Both the position numbers and the translations under genes were made by a program. The notes under the pieces were generated by a model that did not search any database, was not told the origin of the DNA, and was given only the letters and a program-made list of their open reading frames with translations. From assembly GCF_002799155.1 (NCBI RefSeq), contig NZ_NERD01000002.1, positions 3,472,001-3,536,000 of the forward strand: a stretch of DNA of 64,000 nt, written 5' to 3'. Numbering within the stretch: the stretch's first letter is position 1; each line of letters begins with the position of its first letter. This DNA comes from Stenotrophomonas maltophilia. Its GTDB lineage: Bacteria; Pseudomonadota; Gammaproteobacteria; Xanthomonadales; Xanthomonadaceae. This document shows positions 11,760 through 19,753 of the stretch, in pieces.

Positions 11760-12680
11760 ATGCCGTTCCTGGAACTGACCCTGCGCTGCACCGAAGCCAC
11801 CCAGCCCCGCTATGAAAATGCGCTGGAGGACGTCGGCGCACTGGCCGTCACCCTGCTCGATGCCGAAGCCGACACCAGCAACGAACAGGCCATCCTCGAA
11901 CCGGGCGTGGGTGAAACGCCGCTGTGGGACACCCTGGTGCTGAGCGCGCTGTTCCCCGCCGACAGCAACGCGCTGTTGCTGCTGGCCGCACTGGAATCCT
12001 TCGACCCGGAACTGGACTGGAGCAATGGCAGCTTCCGCGCGGTCGAAGACGAAGACTGGGAACGCGCCTGGCTGGACCAGTTCCAGCCGATGGATTTCGG
12101 CAGCCGCACCTGGATCGTGCCGTGGAACCATGAACTGCCGGACGCTGCACAGGCCGCCGATGCCGCCGTGGTGCGGCTGGACCCGGGCCTGGCGTTCGGC
12201 TCGGGCACCCACCCGACCACCGCCCTGTGCCTGCGCTGGCTGGACCAGCTGGCCGTGGACGGCCAGCTGCAGGGCCAGCGCGTGCTCGACTTCGGCTGCG
12301 GCTCGGGCATCCTCGCACTGGCCGCGCTGAAGCTGGGCGCTGCCGAAGCGATCGGCGTGGACAACGATCCGCAGGCGCTGGTCGCCACCGCCGACAATGC
12401 CGAGCGCAATGGCGAGCAGGCCCGCATGCATGTGTACCTGCCGCAGGACGAACCGGTCGCCACCTACCCGGTCGTGGTCGCCAACATCCTTGCTTCGGCG
12501 CTGGATGCACTGGCCGAGCTGCTGGCCGCACGCGTCGCCGCTGGCGGTCGCATTGCCCTGTCGGGCATCCTGCATGGCCAGGAAGGCGAACTGCTGCAGC
12601 GCTATGCCGCGTGGTTCGACGATCTGCAGGCCACCCAGGATGGCGACTGGATGCGCATCACCGGCGTGCGCCGCGCCTGA
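11760..12680 (+). CDS. prmA: ribosomal protein L11 methyltransferase
   Basis: 306 residues, close to the usual length. The N-terminal L11-binding domain ([20 protein letters not shown]) leads to a linker with [14 protein letters not shown], the family motif [18 protein letters not shown], the SAM site [20 protein letters not shown] and the catalytic-site strand [10 protein letters not shown]. It trimethylates ribosomal protein L11 at several amino groups. First gene of a prmA-DUF3426-fis group. Confidence 0.96.
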
Positions 12681-12722
12681 TCATGATTGAATGACCGCTG
12701 GATCCGAGCCCGCGCCCTGAAC

Positions 12723-13881
<1,159 letters not shown>

Positions 13882-13891
13882 GCGCGCGTGG

Positions 13892-13943
13892 GTAGTGCCG
13901 GCCGCTGGCCGGCACTACCGGTAGATCCACGCCATGCGTGGAT
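13892..13943. repeat. SMAG-type REP dimer
   Basis: Two consecutive GTAG-headed hairpins. Unit 1 (13892-13918) has GTAGTGCCGGCC/GGCCGGCACTAC arms; unit 2 (13921-13943) has ATCCACGC/GCGTGGAT arms around CAT. They sit between the convergent ends of fis and the lipid operon and may act as an mRNA 3-prime barrier. Confidence 0.85.
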
Positions 13944-13958
13944 GCCGCCCCGGCAGAA

Positions 13959-14954
13959 TCAGCCGCCTCCGCCTGCCTTCCAGTAATACCGCACCACGTG
14001 GAAGAACACCGGGGCGGCGAAGCACACCGAGTCCAGCCGGTCGAGCATGCCACCATGGCCCTCGATCATGTGGCCCCAGTCCTTGATGCCGCGGTCGCGC
14101 TTGATCGCCGACATCACCAGGCCGCCCCAGAATCCCATCAGGTTGATCAGCAGCGACAGGCCGAACGCCTGCAGCGGCGTGAACGGGGTGATCCACCACA
14201 GCGCCGCGCCCAGCGCACTGGCACTCAGCACGCCGCCCACGAAGCCCTCCACGGTCTTCGACGGCGACAGCTTCGGCGCAATCAGGTGCCTGCCCAGCAA
14301 CTTGCCCCAGATGTACTGCAGCACGTCCGAGGACTGCACCACGATCACCAGGAAGGCGAACAGCAGCACGTTGCGCGACGGGTCATGGCCGGGCACGTGC
14401 AGGTTCAGCAGCAGCGGCACGTGCGAGATGCAGAACACGCAGATCATCAGCCCCCACTGCACCTTCGCCGTGCGCTCCAGGTAGTGCGTGGTGTCGCCAC
14501 CGATGGTCGACAGGATCGGCAGGAACAGGAACGCGTACACCGGGATCAGAAGCGTGTACATGCCGTACCAGTCGATCCACACCAGGTAGTACTGCCAGGG
14601 CAGCACGATGTAGAACGCGGCCAGCAACGCGTAGTAGTCCCCTGAGCGTGTCGGTGCCAGGGTGATGAACTCGCGCAGCGCGAACAGCGAGATGATCGCG
14701 AACAGCACGATCACGCCGGCACGGCCGAAGAACAGCGCCAGCCCGACCACGATCGCCATCACCCACCAGGCACGGATGCGTGAAACCAGGTTGGCGATCA
14801 CCGCACTGGGCCGACCGCGCTGGCGCCAGCGCAGGGTCTCGGCCACCAGCGTGGCCAGCACCAGCACCGCACCGACACCGGCAAACAGCAGGCCGGTCTG
14901 CTGGCCTACGCTCTGCGTTGCCAGATCGCCAGATACATCCAACACGAAACTCAT
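13959..14954 (-). CDS. CDP-diacylglycerol synthase-like (YnbB-type) cytidylyltransferase
   Basis: 331 residues with about eight membrane helices. The CdsA signature is complete near the C-terminus: SAIKRDRGIKDWG, then GHGGMLDRLDS with the metal-binding aspartates. CdsA enzymes condense CTP with phosphatidate to give CDP-diacylglycerol. This gene is last in a six-gene minus-strand operon containing an acyltransferase, a PAP2/dual-specificity phosphatase fusion, a hydrolase/methyltransferase fusion and a CDP-alcohol transferase, so it looks like a dedicated paralogue and not the housekeeping cdsA. The ATG at 14954 overlaps the upstream acyltransferase stop (ATGA). E. coli YnbB is the closest parallel I know. 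Confidence 0.88.
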   Translation of the reverse strand: MSFVLDVSGDLATQSVGQQTGLLFAGVGAVLVLATLVAETLRWRQRGRPSAVIANLVSRIRAWWVMAIVVGLALFFGRAGVIVLFAIISLFALREFITLAPTRSGDYYALLAAFYIVLPWQYYLVWIDWYGMYTLLIPVYAFLFLPILSTIGGDTTHYLERTAKVQWGLMICVFCISHVPLLLNLHVPGHDPSRNVLLFAFLVIVVQSSDVLQYIWGKLLGRHLIAPKLSPSKTVEGFVGGVLSASALGAALWWITPFTPLQAFGLSLLINLMGFWGGLVMSAIKRDRGIKDWGHMIEGHGGMLDRLDSVCFAAPVFFHVVRYYWKAGGGG

Positions 14955-15580
14955 GCACGCCCCCCGTTCGGCGCCAGGTCCAGCAGCGCCTGCCGGCTGC
15001 GGGCCAGGAAGGCCGCCTTGTCCTCGTCGGCCTGCAGCCGCAGCGGCGTCCCGAACGTGGCCGTGCACAGCAGCGGCAGCGGCAGGAACCGCCCCTTGGG
15101 CATCACCCGCTTCAGGTTGTCGATCCACACCGGCACGAACTCCAGCTCCGGCCGTTGCCGCGCCAGATGGTAGATGCCGCTCTTGAACGGCAACAGCGGC
15201 TCATCGCCCACATTGCGGGTACCTTCCGGAAACAGGATCAGCGAGCAGTCTTCGTCCACCGCGTCACGCAGCACCTGCAGCGGGTCCTGCCGGCGCTGGC
15301 CGGCCTCGCGTTCAACCAGCACGCCGTTGAACACCGCGTCGATCAGGTAGCGGCGCAGGCCATCGCGCTGCCAGTATTCGGCCGCAGCCACCGGGCGCAC
15401 CTGGCGCCGCAGTGCTGGTGGCATCGACGACCAGATCAGCACGAAGTCACCATGGCTGGCATGGTTGCCGTAATACACGCGTCGTTCGCTGGACGGCGCG
15501 CAGCCGATCCACAGCGCGCGGGCGCCGGTCACCACATGGATCGCGCCACTGCAGGCGCTGGCAATCAGCTCGGCGAACAT
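14951..15580 (-). CDS. 1-acyl-glycerophosphate acyltransferase-like (PlsC family)
   Basis: 209 residues with the acyltransferase motif I NHASHGD (NHx4D) at about residues 39-45 and motif III FPEGTR at about 119-124, followed by FVPVWIDNL. Enzymes of this class acylate lysophosphatidate or other lyso-lipids at the inner membrane. A strong GGGAGG ribosome site precedes the ATG. It is 13 nt behind the small membrane protein gene and overlaps the cytidylyltransferase gene. By position it would make the phosphatidate or modified lipid used by its operon partners. Confidence 0.88.
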   Translation of the reverse strand: MFAELIASACSGAIHVVTGARALWIGCAPSSERRVYYGNHASHGDFVLIWSSMPPALRRQVRPVAAAEYWQRDGLRRYLIDAVFNGVLVEREAGQRRQDPLQVLRDAVDEDCSLILFPEGTRNVGDEPLLPFKSGIYHLARQRPELEFVPVWIDNLKRVMPKGRFLPLPLLCTATFGTPLRLQADEDKAAFLARSRQALLDLAPNGGRA

Positions 15581-15593
15581 TGGTCCCTCCCGT

Positions 15594-16031
15594 TCACGTC
15601 TGCGGCCACAACACGGCCAGCACCAGCAGTGCGAACTGCACTGTGGTCAGCAGGTATTGGCGCAGCAGCAGGCGGCGCATGCCGGCCCAGCGCGCGTCCC
15701 AGCCGCGCAGCGGCGCATCGGGCGCCGCGCGACGCAGGCCACTGTCGTGCAGCAGCTGATCGGTGCGGCGCGCAGCGGCTTCGCCGTCCAGGCCCTCATC
15801 GCGCAGCAGCTGCAGCAGGCTGGCATCCAGCCCGACCCGCCATGCCTGGCAGGCCTGTGCGATACCCACGGCAACACTGATCAGCAACAGGCCGGCAGCG
15901 ATCATCGCCAGGCCCGGCTCGATGCCGAGCAGCAGCAACGCCACCAGCAACAGGCCCAGCGACAGCAGCGCCGGCCAACGCCCCTGCCGCAACAGCAACT
16001 GCATGGTCGCCAGATCGGGGGCCATGCTCAT
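15594..16031 (-). CDS. small membrane protein in the lipid operon, 145 aa
   Basis: Two adjacent hydrophobic segments at about residues 20-55 (WPALLSLGLLLVALLLLG and AMIAAGLLLISVAVGIAQ), a charged helical middle (LLQLLRDEGLDGEAAARRTDQ) and a C-terminal hydrophobic stretch (YLLTTVQFALLVLAVLW). No family recognised. The ATG at 16031 overlaps the phosphatase gene stop (ATGA), which shows coupling to the operon. Possibly a scaffold or transport partner, but this is inference. Confidence 0.65.
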   Translation of the reverse strand: MSMAPDLATMQLLLRQGRWPALLSLGLLLVALLLLGIEPGLAMIAAGLLLISVAVGIAQACQAWRVGLDASLLQLLRDEGLDGEAAARRTDQLLHDSGLRRAAPDAPLRGWDARWAGMRRLLLRQYLLTTVQFALLVLAVLWPQT

Positions 16032-17353
16032 GCGCGCGCTCCTGCAGCAGTGATGGCCTTCAGGTGCGCTGCGCCCAACACGATGCCGGGGCGTGCACCA
16101 CGCACGATCGCCACCGCCGCGTCCGCGTCGGCCACACGACCACTGCGCAGCAGCCAGGTCGCCACACTGGCGGCGCTGCGCGAATAGCCCAGCGCGCAAC
16201 AGACCAACAGTGGCCCCTGCATGCGCAGGCGCTCGATGGCCTCGGCCGCCGCGCGCAGCTGTTCCGGCGTGGGCACCACCAGGTCCAGCATCGGCACGCT
16301 GGCATACGCCGCGCCCGATGCACGACAGGACAGTTCAGCACAGGTATCGACCACGCCGACCAAGGGTGTTGGCAACGCAGCACAGGGAATGCGCCCCAGC
16401 CACACGCCATCCATCACCGGCACCGGCTGCGGCGCACGTCGCGTCCACAGCCGCGAATTGATCCAGGCCGCGCCCAGGTACGGCGCCAGCAACCAGCGCG
16501 CCGCCATGGTCAGCCGCCCATCGGCGCGCTTCTGGAACACCGCCGTGCCCAGCCCGGCATAGGCCAGCGCCACCAGCAGCAGCGACACCACCGGCCACAG
16601 CAGCCACAACGCCACACTCCGCAGCAGGATCACCGGCACCATCAGCACAGCGGCCCCCAGCAGGTACAACCCCGCCAGGCGCCAGCGCCCGGCATCACGT
16701 GTCGTGCGCCATGCACGCAGCGGTGGCGTGCCCTGCTCCGGCCACAGCCAGACGCACAGCCAGCCGGCCAGCAGGCCGGTCGGGATATCGATGAAGTGAT
16801 GCTGGAACGTGGTCAGTACCGAAACGCCGATCAGCAGCGCCCACCCATGCAGCACCCAGCGCCACGCACCGTGCAGGTATTGCGCGAACTTCACCCACAG
16901 CACGATCAGCAGCACGATGTGCAGCGACGGCGCCTGGTTGAACGGCTTGTCGAAGCCCAGCAGCACGTCGAACAGCCAGCCAAACACACCGCCAATCTCC
17001 GGCCGCTGGAAGCTGAAGCGCAGCGGCCACAGCAGGAAACAACTCACGGCGATCAGCTGTGCACTGAACAGCCGCAGCGCGTGCCGGTCCAGTTCGAGGC
17101 GCTGCCGGCACAGGAAGAACGAGACCGCGTAGAACAGGTCGATCGACCAGTACGGCACGATCGTCCACGGCACGAACGGGATATGCGCCTCCCACGCGAA
17201 CGCCATCACCGGCAGCGTAGCGTGGCGGCCGGCCATCCAGTTGGCGAAGCCATAGCTGGCGAAGAAGAACGGGCCCAGCAGGGCCAGCCACAACAGGGCG
17301 CGCCGCCAGGGGCGCCCCTCTGCGGCCAGCGGGGATGCGGCGAGCGTCGCCAT
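16028..17353 (-). CDS. PAP2-superfamily / dual-specificity phosphatase fusion (YnbD-like)
   Basis: About 441 residues. The N-terminal half is an integral membrane PAP2 domain with five or six helices; FNQAPSLHIVLLIVLW and HHFIDIPTGLLAGW supply the conserved histidines of phosphatase motifs 2 and 3, in the PAP2_3/Aur1-like style. The C-terminal ~140 residues form a cytoplasmic protein-tyrosine/dual-specificity phosphatase with VCCALGYSRSA (Cx5R). E. coli YnbD has the same fusion. It could dephosphorylate a phosphoglycerol- or phosphoinositol-type lipid head group, but the substrate is not known. Start is the ATG overlapping the upstream TGA by one base (a GTG lies 3 nt before). Confidence 0.82.
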   Translation of the reverse strand: MATLAASPLAAEGRPWRRALLWLALLGPFFFASYGFANWMAGRHATLPVMAFAWEAHIPFVPWTIVPYWSIDLFYAVSFFLCRQRLELDRHALRLFSAQLIAVSCFLLWPLRFSFQRPEIGGVFGWLFDVLLGFDKPFNQAPSLHIVLLIVLWVKFAQYLHGAWRWVLHGWALLIGVSVLTTFQHHFIDIPTGLLAGWLCVWLWPEQGTPPLRAWRTTRDAGRWRLAGLYLLGAAVLMVPVILLRSVALWLLWPVVSLLLVALAYAGLGTAVFQKRADGRLTMAARWLLAPYLGAAWINSRLWTRRAPQPVPVMDGVWLGRIPCAALPTPLVGVVDTCAELSCRASGAAYASVPMLDLVVPTPEQLRAAAEAIERLRMQGPLLVCCALGYSRSAASVATWLLRSGRVADADAAVAIVRGARPGIVLGAAHLKAITAAGARA

Positions 17354-19104
17354 CACGCGATCCGGCGCGCCAGCGACACCGTGAAGATGCCGAAGTCGTC
17401 GATACGCTGCGCCACCTTCTCGAACCCGGCCAGGCGCACCAGCTCATCCATTTCCTGTTGGGTACGGCGGCGCATCACCCACGCGGCGCCACCCCGATGG
17501 CTGGTCAGCGCGCGGGCGATGAATTCCAGCTGCGGGTGCCAGGGCTGGCCGGTATAGGCCAGGTAGCCGCCCGCCGGCACCGTCGCGGCAATGCCCTGCA
17601 GCGAGCGCAGCACCGCATCGTTGTCGGGGAACAGCTCGTACAGGCCCGATACCACCGCCAACGTCGGTGCCGGGTCGACCTTCGCCAGCTGCACCGGGTC
17701 GAACGCATCGCCCTGTTCGAAGCGGGCGATGTCGGCCGCCCCCAGGCGCTCTATCAAGGCCTGGCCCTGGGTGACGTTCAGATCGCTGAAGTCACGCAGC
17801 ACGATGCGCTCGGCGCGTTGTTCGCCCTGGCCCAGTGCTTCCAGCACATAGCGGCCATGGCCAGCGGCCACGTCCAGCACGCGCACCGGCGTGCCCTGCC
17901 CGCGCAGGCGCTGGGCAGCATCGCGCAGCAGTTCCTGCAGGTGCTGGCCACGCACGCGGATGCCGCGCCAGCCGATCGCGTCCAGATAATTACGGTCGAC
18001 CATGCGACCCAATGGGCCCTTGCCGCGCGCCTCATCGCGGTAGATGTAGTCGAGCGTGCTGCCCGAATCGAAACCGGTCTGCAGTCCCAGCGCGATACCT
18101 TCGGACAACGTTCCGCCGAAACGCAGGCCGCCACGTACCACCCGCCAGCGCAGGTCGGCCAGGCTGTTGCGCTCCGGTGGCCAGGCCAGGATCTCCGATT
18201 CCTCGAAGGTCGGCCCATGGCGGTGCGCATCGCGCCGTGACAGCTCACGCAGCGGTTCGGCGAAACGCGCCTGGATGAAGCTGCGGATGCGCGCCAGTGC
18301 CGGCGCCCGATCACGTTCGCCCAGCGTGTCGTGGAAGAAGCCCGGCAGGTGCACGCGCTCCTTGACCGGGCTGGACAGGCGCTCGTAGAAGCGGTCCTGC
18401 GGGCCACGATGCACGACGAAGTCCGAGCCGGACACCAGCAGCTGCACCGGCACACTGATCGCCTGCGCATCGGCGACGATGCGGTCGGCGGCCTCGTACA
18501 GGCCCAGCAGTACGCGCACCGAGATCGGCCGGGTGATCAGCGGATCGGTGCGGTAGCTTTCCACCCGCGCCGGGTCATGGGTCAGCCACTGCGGCTTGAC
18601 GTAGCTGTTGACGAAGAAGTTGCCACGCAGCTTCTGCATCAAGGCCAGGCCCGGGCGTGCGAACGGCACGTACAGCTTCACCTTGAACGCCGGCGAAGCC
18701 ATCACCAGTGCGCGCAGGCGCGGTGCGTAATCGTGCACCCAGGTGGCGGCAACCACCGCTCCCACGCTTTGCGCGATCACCACGATGTCCTGCACCGCGA
18801 TGCCATGCTCGGCGCCGATATGGGCAATGAAGCTGTCCAGATCGCGCACCAGCGCCGGGAAGCCCGGTGCATCGCCACGTGCGCCCGGCGAACGGCCATT
18901 GCCACGCGCGTCCCAGGCGAAGAAGGCGGTGTCGGGCAGGTCCAGCTCATCGACCAGGTGGGTGACACGCCCGGAGTGCTCGTGGCCACGATGCAACAGC
19001 ACGATGGCCTTGGTGGCCGGGGTGGCGGTGGTGCCCGCCCAGTACCGGTAGAACAGCGGTACCTGGTCGAAGCTGTGGAATTCCCGTTCCTGCGCCTGGC
19101 GCAT
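17353..19104 (-). CDS. alpha/beta hydrolase / SAM-methyltransferase fusion (YnbC-like)
   Basis: 583 residues, essentially the length of E. coli YnbC. Residues ~1-290 form an alpha/beta hydrolase: FAWDARGNGRSPG, nucleophile elbow VVIAQSVGAV (unusual Q-S-V-G), and a late acid/His pair near SGSDFVVHRGPQ and GFFHDTLGE. Residues ~350-583 form a class I methyltransferase with RVLDVAAGHGRYVLEAL (motif I). Both catalytic activities are plausible on a lipid: deacylation or transacylation plus head-group methylation. Second gene of the operon, 31 nt behind the CDP-alcohol transferase gene. Start chosen at the ATG directly preceding the hydrolase domain. Confidence 0.82.
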   Translation of the reverse strand: MRQAQEREFHSFDQVPLFYRYWAGTTATPATKAIVLLHRGHEHSGRVTHLVDELDLPDTAFFAWDARGNGRSPGARGDAPGFPALVRDLDSFIAHIGAEHGIAVQDIVVIAQSVGAVVAATWVHDYAPRLRALVMASPAFKVKLYVPFARPGLALMQKLRGNFFVNSYVKPQWLTHDPARVESYRTDPLITRPISVRVLLGLYEAADRIVADAQAISVPVQLLVSGSDFVVHRGPQDRFYERLSSPVKERVHLPGFFHDTLGERDRAPALARIRSFIQARFAEPLRELSRRDAHRHGPTFEESEILAWPPERNSLADLRWRVVRGGLRFGGTLSEGIALGLQTGFDSGSTLDYIYRDEARGKGPLGRMVDRNYLDAIGWRGIRVRGQHLQELLRDAAQRLRGQGTPVRVLDVAAGHGRYVLEALGQGEQRAERIVLRDFSDLNVTQGQALIERLGAADIARFEQGDAFDPVQLAKVDPAPTLAVVSGLYELFPDNDAVLRSLQGIAATVPAGGYLAYTGQPWHPQLEFIARALTSHRGGAAWVMRRRTQQEMDELVRLAGFEKVAQRIDDFGIFTVSLARRIA

Positions 19105-19135
19105 GCAATCTCCTGATTGTCTTTTTGTATCTTGA

Positions 19136-19753
19136 TTAATTCGGCGAAACCGCCGCTTCCCGCAGTCCACGACGGACGCGGTTGATCATCGTCAGCACGC
19201 ACAGCACCGCCATGGCCGCGGCCACGCCAGTGACCGTCATCGCGCCACCCCACTCAAACGCCAGCAGCAGGCCCAGCGCACCGATCACGAAGGCGCGATC
19301 GCTCTTGCCCATCGGGCCGTCATAGCGGCGGCTGGCGCCGACCATCAGCCCCAGCACCCCGGCGTACTCGCTCAGCGCAGCGGTCCAGGCCAGCAGCCAC
19401 AGCGCCTCCGGGCGCACGCCCGGCACGCTGAGCAGGCTCAGGTACAGCGCGGCGTCGGCGATCACATCGCACAGCTCGTTCAGATAGGCGCCCAGCCGCG
19501 ACTGCTGGCCGAACTCGCGGGCCAGCATGCCGTCCACGGCGTTGAGCGCCATGCGCAGCAGCATCCACAGCGGCAGCAGCAGGTACAACAGCGGCTGGGC
19601 CGGCGCGCAGCACCACACGGCGGCGGCCACCAGCAGCGAGACCCCGGCAGCGGCCACGGTCACCGTATTGGCGGTGATCCCCATGCGGTACAGGCCGCGT
19701 ACGGCCGGACGCAACAGGTCCTGGAAACGTCCTTTCAATGCATAGATCGACAT
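19136..19753 (-). CDS. CDP-alcohol phosphatidyltransferase (YnbA-like)
   Basis: 205 residues with about five membrane helices. The family motif DGx2ARx8Gx3Dx3D appears as DGMLAR, then GAYLNELCD: the third Asp is replaced by Asn, while the first, second and fourth acidic positions are retained. These enzymes transfer a phosphatidyl group from CDP-diacylglycerol to a small alcohol such as glycerol phosphate, serine or inositol phosphate. It opens the operon, in an arrangement resembling E. coli ynbABCD. The alcohol acceptor cannot be read from the sequence. It diverges from purH, leaving a 208-nt shared gap. Confidence 0.85.
   Translation of the reverse strand: MSIYALKGRFQDLLRPAVRGLYRMGITANTVTVAAAGVSLLVAAAVWCCAPAQPLLYLLLPLWMLLRMALNAVDGMLAREFGQQSRLGAYLNELCDVIADAALYLSLLSVPGVRPEALWLLAWTAALSEYAGVLGLMVGASRRYDGPMGKSDRAFVIGALGLLLAFEWGGAMTVTGVAAAMAVLCVLTMINRVRRGLREAAVSPN

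What the first reader, a model, noticed from the sequence alone, without database searches (positions are those of the whole stretch)
13959..19753. Six-gene ynbABCD-like lipid operon with an added acyltransferase
In the sequence, a CDP-alcohol transferase, an alpha/beta hydrolase-methyltransferase fusion, a PAP2-dual-specificity phosphatase fusion, a small membrane protein, a PlsC-type acyltransferase and a CdsA-like enzyme lie on one strand, most with 1-4 nt overlaps. From what I know, E. coli ynbA, ynbB, ynbC and ynbD encode the same four types (same fusions, near-identical lengths) and are functionally uncharacterised. The acyltransferase and small protein complete a route: acylate, activate with CTP, transfer to an alcohol phosphate, dephosphorylate, methylate or deacylate. 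I infer a dedicated pathway for a non-standard phospholipid, separate from housekeeping synthesis.
Basis: partly seen in the sequence, partly recalled or inferred. Interest (0 to 1): 0.78.

Follow-up and report, generated by a model that had tools for sequence, protein, structure and literature searches.

The report
Arc1-type lipid operon for interbacterial defence
Six neighbouring genes in a Stenotrophomonas genome look like a spare phospholipid-making pathway of a kind that Pseudomonas uses to survive attack by toxin-injecting neighbours; the kind is known, but the lipid it makes is not, and one enzyme has an unusual active site.

Summary
Six intact genes (13959-19753, minus strand) encode a CDP-alcohol-transferase-like enzyme (A), a hydrolase-methyltransferase (C), a PAP2-DSP phosphatase (D), a small protein (s), a PlsC-like acyltransferase (P) and a CdsA-like enzyme (B). 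Four match E. coli YnbA-D at 39-55% identity.

The reading needs correction. Six genes is the usual form: A-C-D-P-B stand in order in 77 of 80 loci, with s in 77 of 78. By published gene content this is arc1A-F (PA2541-PA2536) of P. aeruginosa, a Gac/Rsm-controlled cluster that resists type VI attack, with an auxiliary part in resisting lipase effectors. I could not obtain the P. aeruginosa sequence to confirm it. So the kind is not uncharacterised; its lipid product is.

New here: in 88 of 88 A-proteins two of four metal-binding aspartates are asparagine, and the acceptor-binding K/R is hydrophobic. A, B and C stand together in all six distant loci, D, s and P in some. Both points weaken, without refuting, the proposed 'alcohol phosphate, then dephosphorylate' route.

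Verdict: new member of a known kind, with unsolved, testable chemistry.

The parts
19136..19753 (-). A (ynbA/arc1A-like): protein of the CDP-alcohol phosphotransferase fold, 205 aa, first gene of the operon
   Evidence: Pfam CDP-OH_P_transf; YnbA 43%; AlphaFold model pLDDT 92.8; VIA-align Z 20.4 to PIP synthase 5d91, rmsd 3.1, 194 aligned
19466..19543 (-). variant signature motif N71-x2-D74-G-x2-A-R-x8-G-x3-N92-x3-D96 (usual Asp at positions 1 and 3 replaced by Asn), followed by V97 where PIP synthase has R94
   Evidence: strict pattern missed by none of 82 sequences, plus 6 further; the Asn align on Asp of solved PIP synthases
17353..19104 (-). C (ynbC-like): fusion of a monoacylglycerol-lipase-like hydrolase (about 18310-19017) and a Methyltransf_20 domain (about 17362-18288), 583 aa
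   Evidence: Pfam; YnbC 55%; best PDB sequence match monoacylglycerol lipase 6qe2 7.5e-18; S113, D228, H258 in 20 of 20 aligned sequences
16028..17353 (-). D (ynbD-like): PAP2-type domain (about 16742-17005) fused to a DSP/PTP phosphatase (about 16049-16324), 441 aa (GTG start at 17356 also possible)
   Evidence: at E up to 1: DSPc 20 of 20, PAP2 18 of 20, PAP2_3 13 of 20 aligned sequences; DSP part of the model resembles DSPs, among them PTPMT1 3rgq Z 15.5, rmsd 2.2, 133 aligned; C386 and R392 in 81 of 81 sequences with a letter there
15594..16031 (-). s: small protein, 145 aa, no known family; presumed membrane protein (not tested)
   Evidence: no Pfam/NCBIfam match; family member between D and P in 77 of 78 loci; one copy in own genome
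14951..15580 (-). P: PlsC-like acyltransferase, 209 aa, HX4D and FPEGTR motifs
   Evidence: Pfam Acyltransferase 1.7e-14; H40, D45 and F117-R122 at least 97% conserved in 79 sequences
13959..14954 (-). B (ynbB-like): CdsA-type cytidylyltransferase, 331 aa, last gene
   Evidence: Pfam CTP_transf_1 5e-69; YnbB 39%; SPSKT and KRD..KD..GHGG..DR.D residues at least 97% conserved in 80 sequences

Best explanation
This is the Stenotrophomonas form of arc1A-F, an auxiliary phospholipid pathway that helps a cell survive toxins injected by neighbouring bacteria, lipase effectors among them. Proposed route: P acylates a lysophospholipid (probably lysophosphatidate) made or left by damage; B activates the phosphatidate with CTP to CDP-diacylglycerol; A transfers the phosphatidyl group to a small anionic alcohol, giving a phospholipid that housekeeping enzymes do not make; C removes monoacyl by-products with its lipase half and methylates a pathway lipid with the other half; D trims a phosphate in most versions. 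The new or repaired lipid preserves the membrane under attack. Shown here: gene set, domain identities, conserved residues, conserved order. Shown by others in P. aeruginosa: Gac/Rsm control and the defence phenotype. Inferred: orthology to PA2541-36 beyond gene content, transfer of the phenotype to this host, every substrate and the order of reactions.
For: Gene content fits the published arc1: six genes, five lipid-related, four like PG-synthesis enzymes. In 49 of 49 Pseudomonas loci the A-protein has SIY at residues 3-5, and in 16 it starts MIS, the start implied by the published PA2541 deletion primers. arc1A loss sensitises P. aeruginosa to V. cholerae attack, less so without active TseL, and to A. 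baylyi carrying only Tle1 (passages). Conserved gene set. Other CTP_transf_1 and CDP-OH genes elsewhere in the genome. Patchy presence fits an accessory trait: full-length C in 27 of 149 genomes of the family. An Arc3A-family (DUF2339) protein is also present.
Against: The P. aeruginosa sequence was not obtained: the primer pattern hit 0 of 398 Pseudomonadaceae genomes; a degenerate form gave 1 hit against 5 for the backward-read control. Ting et al.: no single effector mutation rescued the arc1 mutant, only one arc1 gene passed the cut-off for Tle3 defence, and arc1 loss also modestly raised attacker survival. The 2025 paper: removing arc1A and aas besides arc3A added nothing against V. cholerae, so an auxiliary role. 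No lipid product in the passages I read. Leader test for RsmA sites inconclusive.
Confidence: 0.62

Rival explanations
1. Pathway for a non-standard structural lipid: phosphatidyl transfer to an alcohol phosphate, dephosphorylation by D, then methylation; defence would be a side effect. (The rivals overlap in part, so the odds need not add to one.)
For: Domain set fits; A is most like PIP synthase in fold and has R153 and R192 in 82 of 82 sequences, which I match to the phosphate-binding R155 and R195 of PIP synthase; the DSP part of D resembles the lipid phosphatase PTPMT1, though equally other DSPs.
Against: No K/R after the fourth Asp in 88 of 88, a residue critical in PIP synthase; D not beside A, B and C in three of six distant loci; no myo-inositol-phosphate synthase match in the genome; arc1 expression in P. 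aeruginosa is very low until Gac/Rsm is triggered.
Confidence: 0.25
2. Resynthesis of ordinary phosphatidylglycerol: the operon duplicates PlsC, CdsA, PgsA and a phosphatase to refill PG lost to lipases.
For: Ting et al. describe four products as PG-synthesis homologues; the DSP part resembles PTPMT1 among others.
Against: A aligns better to PIP synthase (Z 20.4) than to PG-phosphate synthase (Z 12.0, rmsd 4.7, 169 aligned), lacks the Lys that 23 of 25 control enzymes carry, and has two Asn in the metal site. YnbB could not replace CdsA for bulk phospholipid.
Confidence: 0.12
3. Backup for the glycolipid MPIase: B makes CDP-diacylglycerol and GlcNAc-PP-DAG, the rest matures or turns over that lipid.
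For: E. coli YnbB overproduction raises MPIase (passages).
Against: Deleting ynbB left MPIase not significantly changed; none of the six proteins matched a glycosyltransferase family; does not need A, C or P.
Confidence: 0.06
4. A is not an active transferase but a lipid-binding or regulatory relative; the working pathway is B, C, D and P.
For: Two of four metal ligands are neutral.
Against: A stands with full-length C in all 80 loci and all 6; D74, G75, A78, R79 and D96 are at least 97% conserved in 82 sequences, which argues for catalysis; Ting et al. deleted PA2541 and PA2536 as the most strongly hit genes of the operon.
Confidence: 0.1

Closest known systems
arc1A-F (PA2541-PA2536), antagonism resistance cluster 1, Pseudomonas aeruginosa (PMC8926400, PMC12663445)
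   Same: Six genes, five lipid-related, four like PG-synthesis enzymes; that PA2541 is the A-type and PA2536 the B-type gene is recalled from PAO1 annotation
   Different: Sequence not compared directly; regulation and phenotype unknown in Stenotrophomonas
E. coli ynbA-ynbB-ynbC-ynbD
   Same: A, B, C, D with the same two fusions, 39-55% identity; same N/N motif in YnbA
   Different: Order A-B-C-D; no P and no s; YnbB reported as auxiliary for MPIase
Bacteroides inositol-lipid cluster BT_1522-1526 (PMC9246714, passages)
   Same: CDP-alcohol transferase plus a lipid phosphatase in one cluster
   Different: Has MIP synthase and an AUR1-like protein; no CdsA, acyltransferase, hydrolase or methyltransferase among the five genes named in the passages read; this genome has no MIP synthase match
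Actinobacterial PIP synthase (6h53, 5d91)
   Same: Fold, Z about 20; R155 and R195 equivalents kept by my reading
   Different: Asp 1 and 3 of the motif are Asn and R94 is Val in A

Membership tests
arc1 (antagonism resistance cluster 1) | six co-directional genes, five lipid-related, four of PG-synthesis type | tested here: met
   against the description
arc1 (antagonism resistance cluster 1) | sequence orthology to PA2541-PA2536 | tested here: inconclusive
   PAO1 sequence not reached; primer-implied MIS start fits 16 of 49 Pseudomonas A-proteins exactly; one primer maps to C+884 in 10 of 49 Pseudomonas loci with up to 4 of 18 mismatches, reached by 8 of 300 shuffles
arc1 (antagonism resistance cluster 1) | Gac/Rsm control | tested here: inconclusive
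   ANGGA counts before A do not stand out from those before C
arc1 (antagonism resistance cluster 1) | defence phenotype against type VI attack | not testable with these tools
   published for P. aeruginosa
ynbABCD | A, B, C and D relatives with the C and D fusions | tested here: met
ynbABCD | four-gene order A-B-C-D | tested here: not met
   order here is A-C-D-s-P-B
CDP-alcohol phosphotransferase superfamily | fold | tested here: met
   Pfam; VIA-align
CDP-alcohol phosphotransferase superfamily | four-Asp signature DxxDGxxAR..GxxxDxxxD | tested here: not met
   Asn at positions 1 and 3 in 88 of 88 A-proteins
PIP synthase / archaetidylinositol-phosphate synthase | curated NCBIfam cut-off | tested here: not met
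   48.7 of 170 and 71.2 of 180 bits
PIP synthase / archaetidylinositol-phosphate synthase | K/R after the fourth Asp | tested here: not met
   V, I, A, M or L in 88 of 88
PAP2 phosphatase | PSGH and SRx5Hx3D motifs (recalled) | tested here: inconclusive
   H145, H185, D189 kept, but PSLH, and Val for the Arg of SR in 80 of 81 sequences with a letter; Pfam score below cut-off; PAP2 half not reached by the fold comparison
DSP/PTP phosphatase | Cx5R catalytic loop | tested here: met
   C386 and R392 in 81 of 81 sequences with a letter

The most novel reading that the evidence does not exclude
A/YnbA/Arc1A is a distinct class of CDP-alcohol transferase whose metal site has two Asp and two Asn and which does not hold its acceptor as inositol- or glycerol-phosphate enzymes do. 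With its fixed partners B and C it makes an undescribed, probably methylated phospholipid, which bacteria switch on to withstand phospholipase toxins of their rivals.
Probability: 0.35. Interest if true: 0.72.

Novelty: new member of a known kind. Interest (0 to 1): 0.45.

Why it matters
Two P. aeruginosa screens, by different methods and against different attackers, put arc1 among the genes that resist type VI toxins, yet its chemistry was not given in what I read. The A+B+C core, the altered metal site and an E. coli K-12 counterpart give a simple place to find the lipid and to ask how a membrane is defended rather than how a single toxin is neutralised.

Tried and rejected
Inositol lipid from the cell's own inositol phosphate: no PF07994 match in the genome. 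Viral carriage: a viral-contig scan with C gave 17 pattern matches, none a relative. Anti-phage system: PADLOC gave two matches in C, mad2 1.4e-6 and MTase_II 0.0068, both in its methyltransferase half, and none for the other five proteins.

RsmA/CsrA sites in the leader: mean ANGGA counts before A (0.88 in loci L008-L032, 0.98 in L033-L087) do not stand out from those before C (0.60 and 1.18). Gain or loss of P: the C tree (18 sequences) is unrooted, with 6 open forks and two long branches meeting. The one small-protein miss, L061, has P upstream of D, so the script searched no interval there. In 7 of 32 control loci the regular expression found no motif; they are left out of the 25 counted. 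L022 first seemed to break the motif because a loose pattern matched elsewhere; the strict one fits it.

Paper searches on the point: PA2541 with phosphatidyltransferase, 0 papers; Methyltransf_20/PF12147, 0 papers; Asn variant, 38 papers of which 20 were listed, no listed title on YnbA or Arc1A, one opened (PMC6506517). The ynb searches listed 13 and 4 papers; of these I opened only PMC6362211 and PMC7018664, so an ynbA mention in PMC12871917, for one, is unread.
Full report
What is there. The window lies in a 4.42-Mb genome; its C protein is 98% identical to that of records named Stenotrophomonas maltophilia and near relatives. Six intact genes run on the minus strand from 19753 to 13959: A (CDP-alcohol-transferase-like), C (hydrolase-methyltransferase), D (PAP2-DSP), s (small protein), P (PlsC-like), B (CdsA-like). 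Three of five junctions overlap by 1-4 nt; the others have gaps of 31 and 13 nt.

Comparison with E. coli. ynbABCD was fetched from MG1655. A, B, C and D are 43, 39, 55 and 43% identical to YnbA, YnbB, YnbC and YnbD; P and s have no counterpart there. YnbB is not uncharacterised: its overproduction raises the glycolipid MPIase, its deletion leaves MPIase not significantly changed, and it cannot replace CdsA (PMC6362211, passages; PMC7018664, passages).

Distribution. In 77 of these 80, A-C-D-P-B stand in this order, with s detected directly in 16 of the 77; of the other three, two (L039, L066) end at a contig edge and one (L061, an Acidobacteria MAG) reads P-B-A-C-D. A profile search found s between D and P in 77 of 78 loci; the one miss, L061, could not be searched that way. 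The 80 are not an even sample: 49 are Pseudomonas. In even draws the full-length C fusion is patchy: 27 of 149 genomes of the host's family (my count of matches above 800 bits; 46 of 149 have any match, the other 19 partial), 5 of 274 of its class by PF12147 above 300 bits (8 of 274 at the default threshold), and 3 of 149 in the phylum of the Acidobacteria MAG (my count above 600 bits; 36 of 149 have any match). At least one genome of the same genus has no match (G568) and another only a partial one (G819).

Variants. Six distant loci give the orders A-C-D-s-B-P (L098, L112), A-B-C-D (L101), A-C-P-B (L100), A-B-P-C (L113), and C-B with A on the other strand (L099). A, B and C are in all six; D is not found in the fetched 16-19 kb of L099, L100 and L113. 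The rest of those genomes was not searched. I read A+B+C as the core. In Xanthomonas and some Lysobacter loci about 2 kb stands between s and P: in L016 a TIGR04222 membrane protein and a second CDP-OH enzyme, with such an enzyme also in L023.

Published function. Searching the P. aeruginosa locus tags that I recalled for such genes (PA2541 to PA2536) led to PMC8926400. I read its abstract, sections 5 and 6, and passages. PA2541-36 is arc1A-F. It is Gac/Rsm-controlled and was hit in transposon screens for survival under Burkholderia thailandensis type VI attack; arc1-3 mutants survive heat, peroxide, salt and detergent like wild type. Five of six products are described as lipid-related and four as like PG-synthesis enzymes. 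No single effector mutation rescued the arc1 mutant; only one arc1 gene passed the cut-off for Tle3 defence; arc1 loss also modestly raised attacker survival. PMC12663445 (passages) found arc1A in a CRISPRi screen and reports it needed for full resistance to the V. cholerae and A. baylyi lipases; a mutant also lacking arc3A and aas was no worse against V. cholerae than one lacking arc3A, so its authors suggest an auxiliary role. The lipid product is not given in what I read. Direct sequence comparison failed: the primer pattern hit none of 398 Pseudomonadaceae genomes, and its degenerate form hit one, against five for the backward-read control. Indirect support is the MIS start and one primer site; the PAO1 gene annotations are from recall.

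The unusual transferase. The superfamily motif is DxxDGxxAR-x8-GxxxDxxxD. Of 82 A-proteins (80 loci, E. coli, window) none misses the pattern NxxDGxxAR-x8-GxxxNxxxD, and six distant ones agree. As a control, 25 of 32 other CDP-OH loci, three of them from this genome, show the motif to the regular expression; all 25 have Asp at both places, and 23 of the 25 have Lys after the last Asp, the two others Val and Leu. In A that residue is V, I, A, M or L in 88 of 88. So the missing Lys alone is not unique to A, whereas the two Asn are not seen in the 25 controls. In the M. tuberculosis PIP synthase, Mg-1 is held by D68, D71 and D89 and Mg-2 by D89 and D93; R94 is critical for the phosphorylated acceptor; R155 and R195 bind its phosphate (PMC6506517, passages). 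A therefore has Asn for D68 and D89 and Val for R94, but keeps R153 and R192 in 82 of 82, which I match to R155 and R195 from the alignment; the first match is offset by one residue there. An anionic acceptor is likely; inositol- or glycerol-phosphate binding of the usual kind is less so. The model of A (pLDDT 92.8) aligns best to PIP synthase (5d91, Z 20.4, rmsd 3.1, 194 aligned), then to AF2299 (4o6m, Z 18.1, rmsd 2.7, 182) and cholinephosphotransferase (8ero, Z 15.6, rmsd 3.7, 198), and less well to phosphatidylserine synthase (7pow, Z 13.6, rmsd 3.2, 147) and PG-phosphate synthase (7drj, Z 12.0, rmsd 4.7, 169).

The other enzymes. C has a monoacylglycerol-lipase-like half (6qe2, 7.5e-18) with S113, D228 and H258 in 20 of 20 sequences. 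D keeps the DSP Cx5R loop in 81 of 81 sequences with a letter and the PAP2 His/His/Asp, but the Arg of the SR motif is Val in 80 of 81; 13 of 20 members match PAP2_3 at E up to 1, best 7.2e-6. That I recall as the AUR1-like branch, so D may move a head group rather than remove it; not tested.

Mechanism. I favour an inducible membrane-repair or membrane-replacement pathway: P makes phosphatidate from lyso-lipid, B makes CDP-diacylglycerol, A forms an unusual phospholipid, C clears monoacyl lipids and methylates, D adjusts phosphate where present. Every substrate is inferred. The defence role in Stenotrophomonas is inferred from P. aeruginosa.

Verdict. Real, intact and widespread; a new member of the arc1 kind, not a new kind. 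The open point worth following is the chemistry of A with its partners B and C.

Noticed in passing
L016 about 12529-14660; gaps of similar size before P in L013, L015, L017, L020, L021, L022, L023, L024, L027: An insertion of about 2 kb inside the operon in Xanthomonas and some Lysobacter. In L016 it holds a TIGR04222 membrane protein (3.2e-33) and a second CDP-OH enzyme, which L023 also has. Read by eye (L013, L016, L020, L023, L027), Asp positions 1 and 3 of the second enzymes are N or S, and N, S or H.
   Followed up: partly
L099 11025-11621 (-) and L101 11260-11898 (-): A presumably secreted protein (SnoaL-like by Pfam in L099, no Pfam match in L101) lies beside the cluster in two distant genomes; that the two are related is my reading by eye.
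   Followed up: partly
own genome C1:2997173-2999404 (L088): A DUF2339 protein, the Arc3A family that prevents lysophospholipid build-up in P. aeruginosa, is present outside the window.
   Followed up: no
G754 contig 97:1125-2804: A second copy of the C fusion is matched in two pieces, each listed with an open frame of 584 aa, besides a full-length match on contig 229.
   Followed up: no
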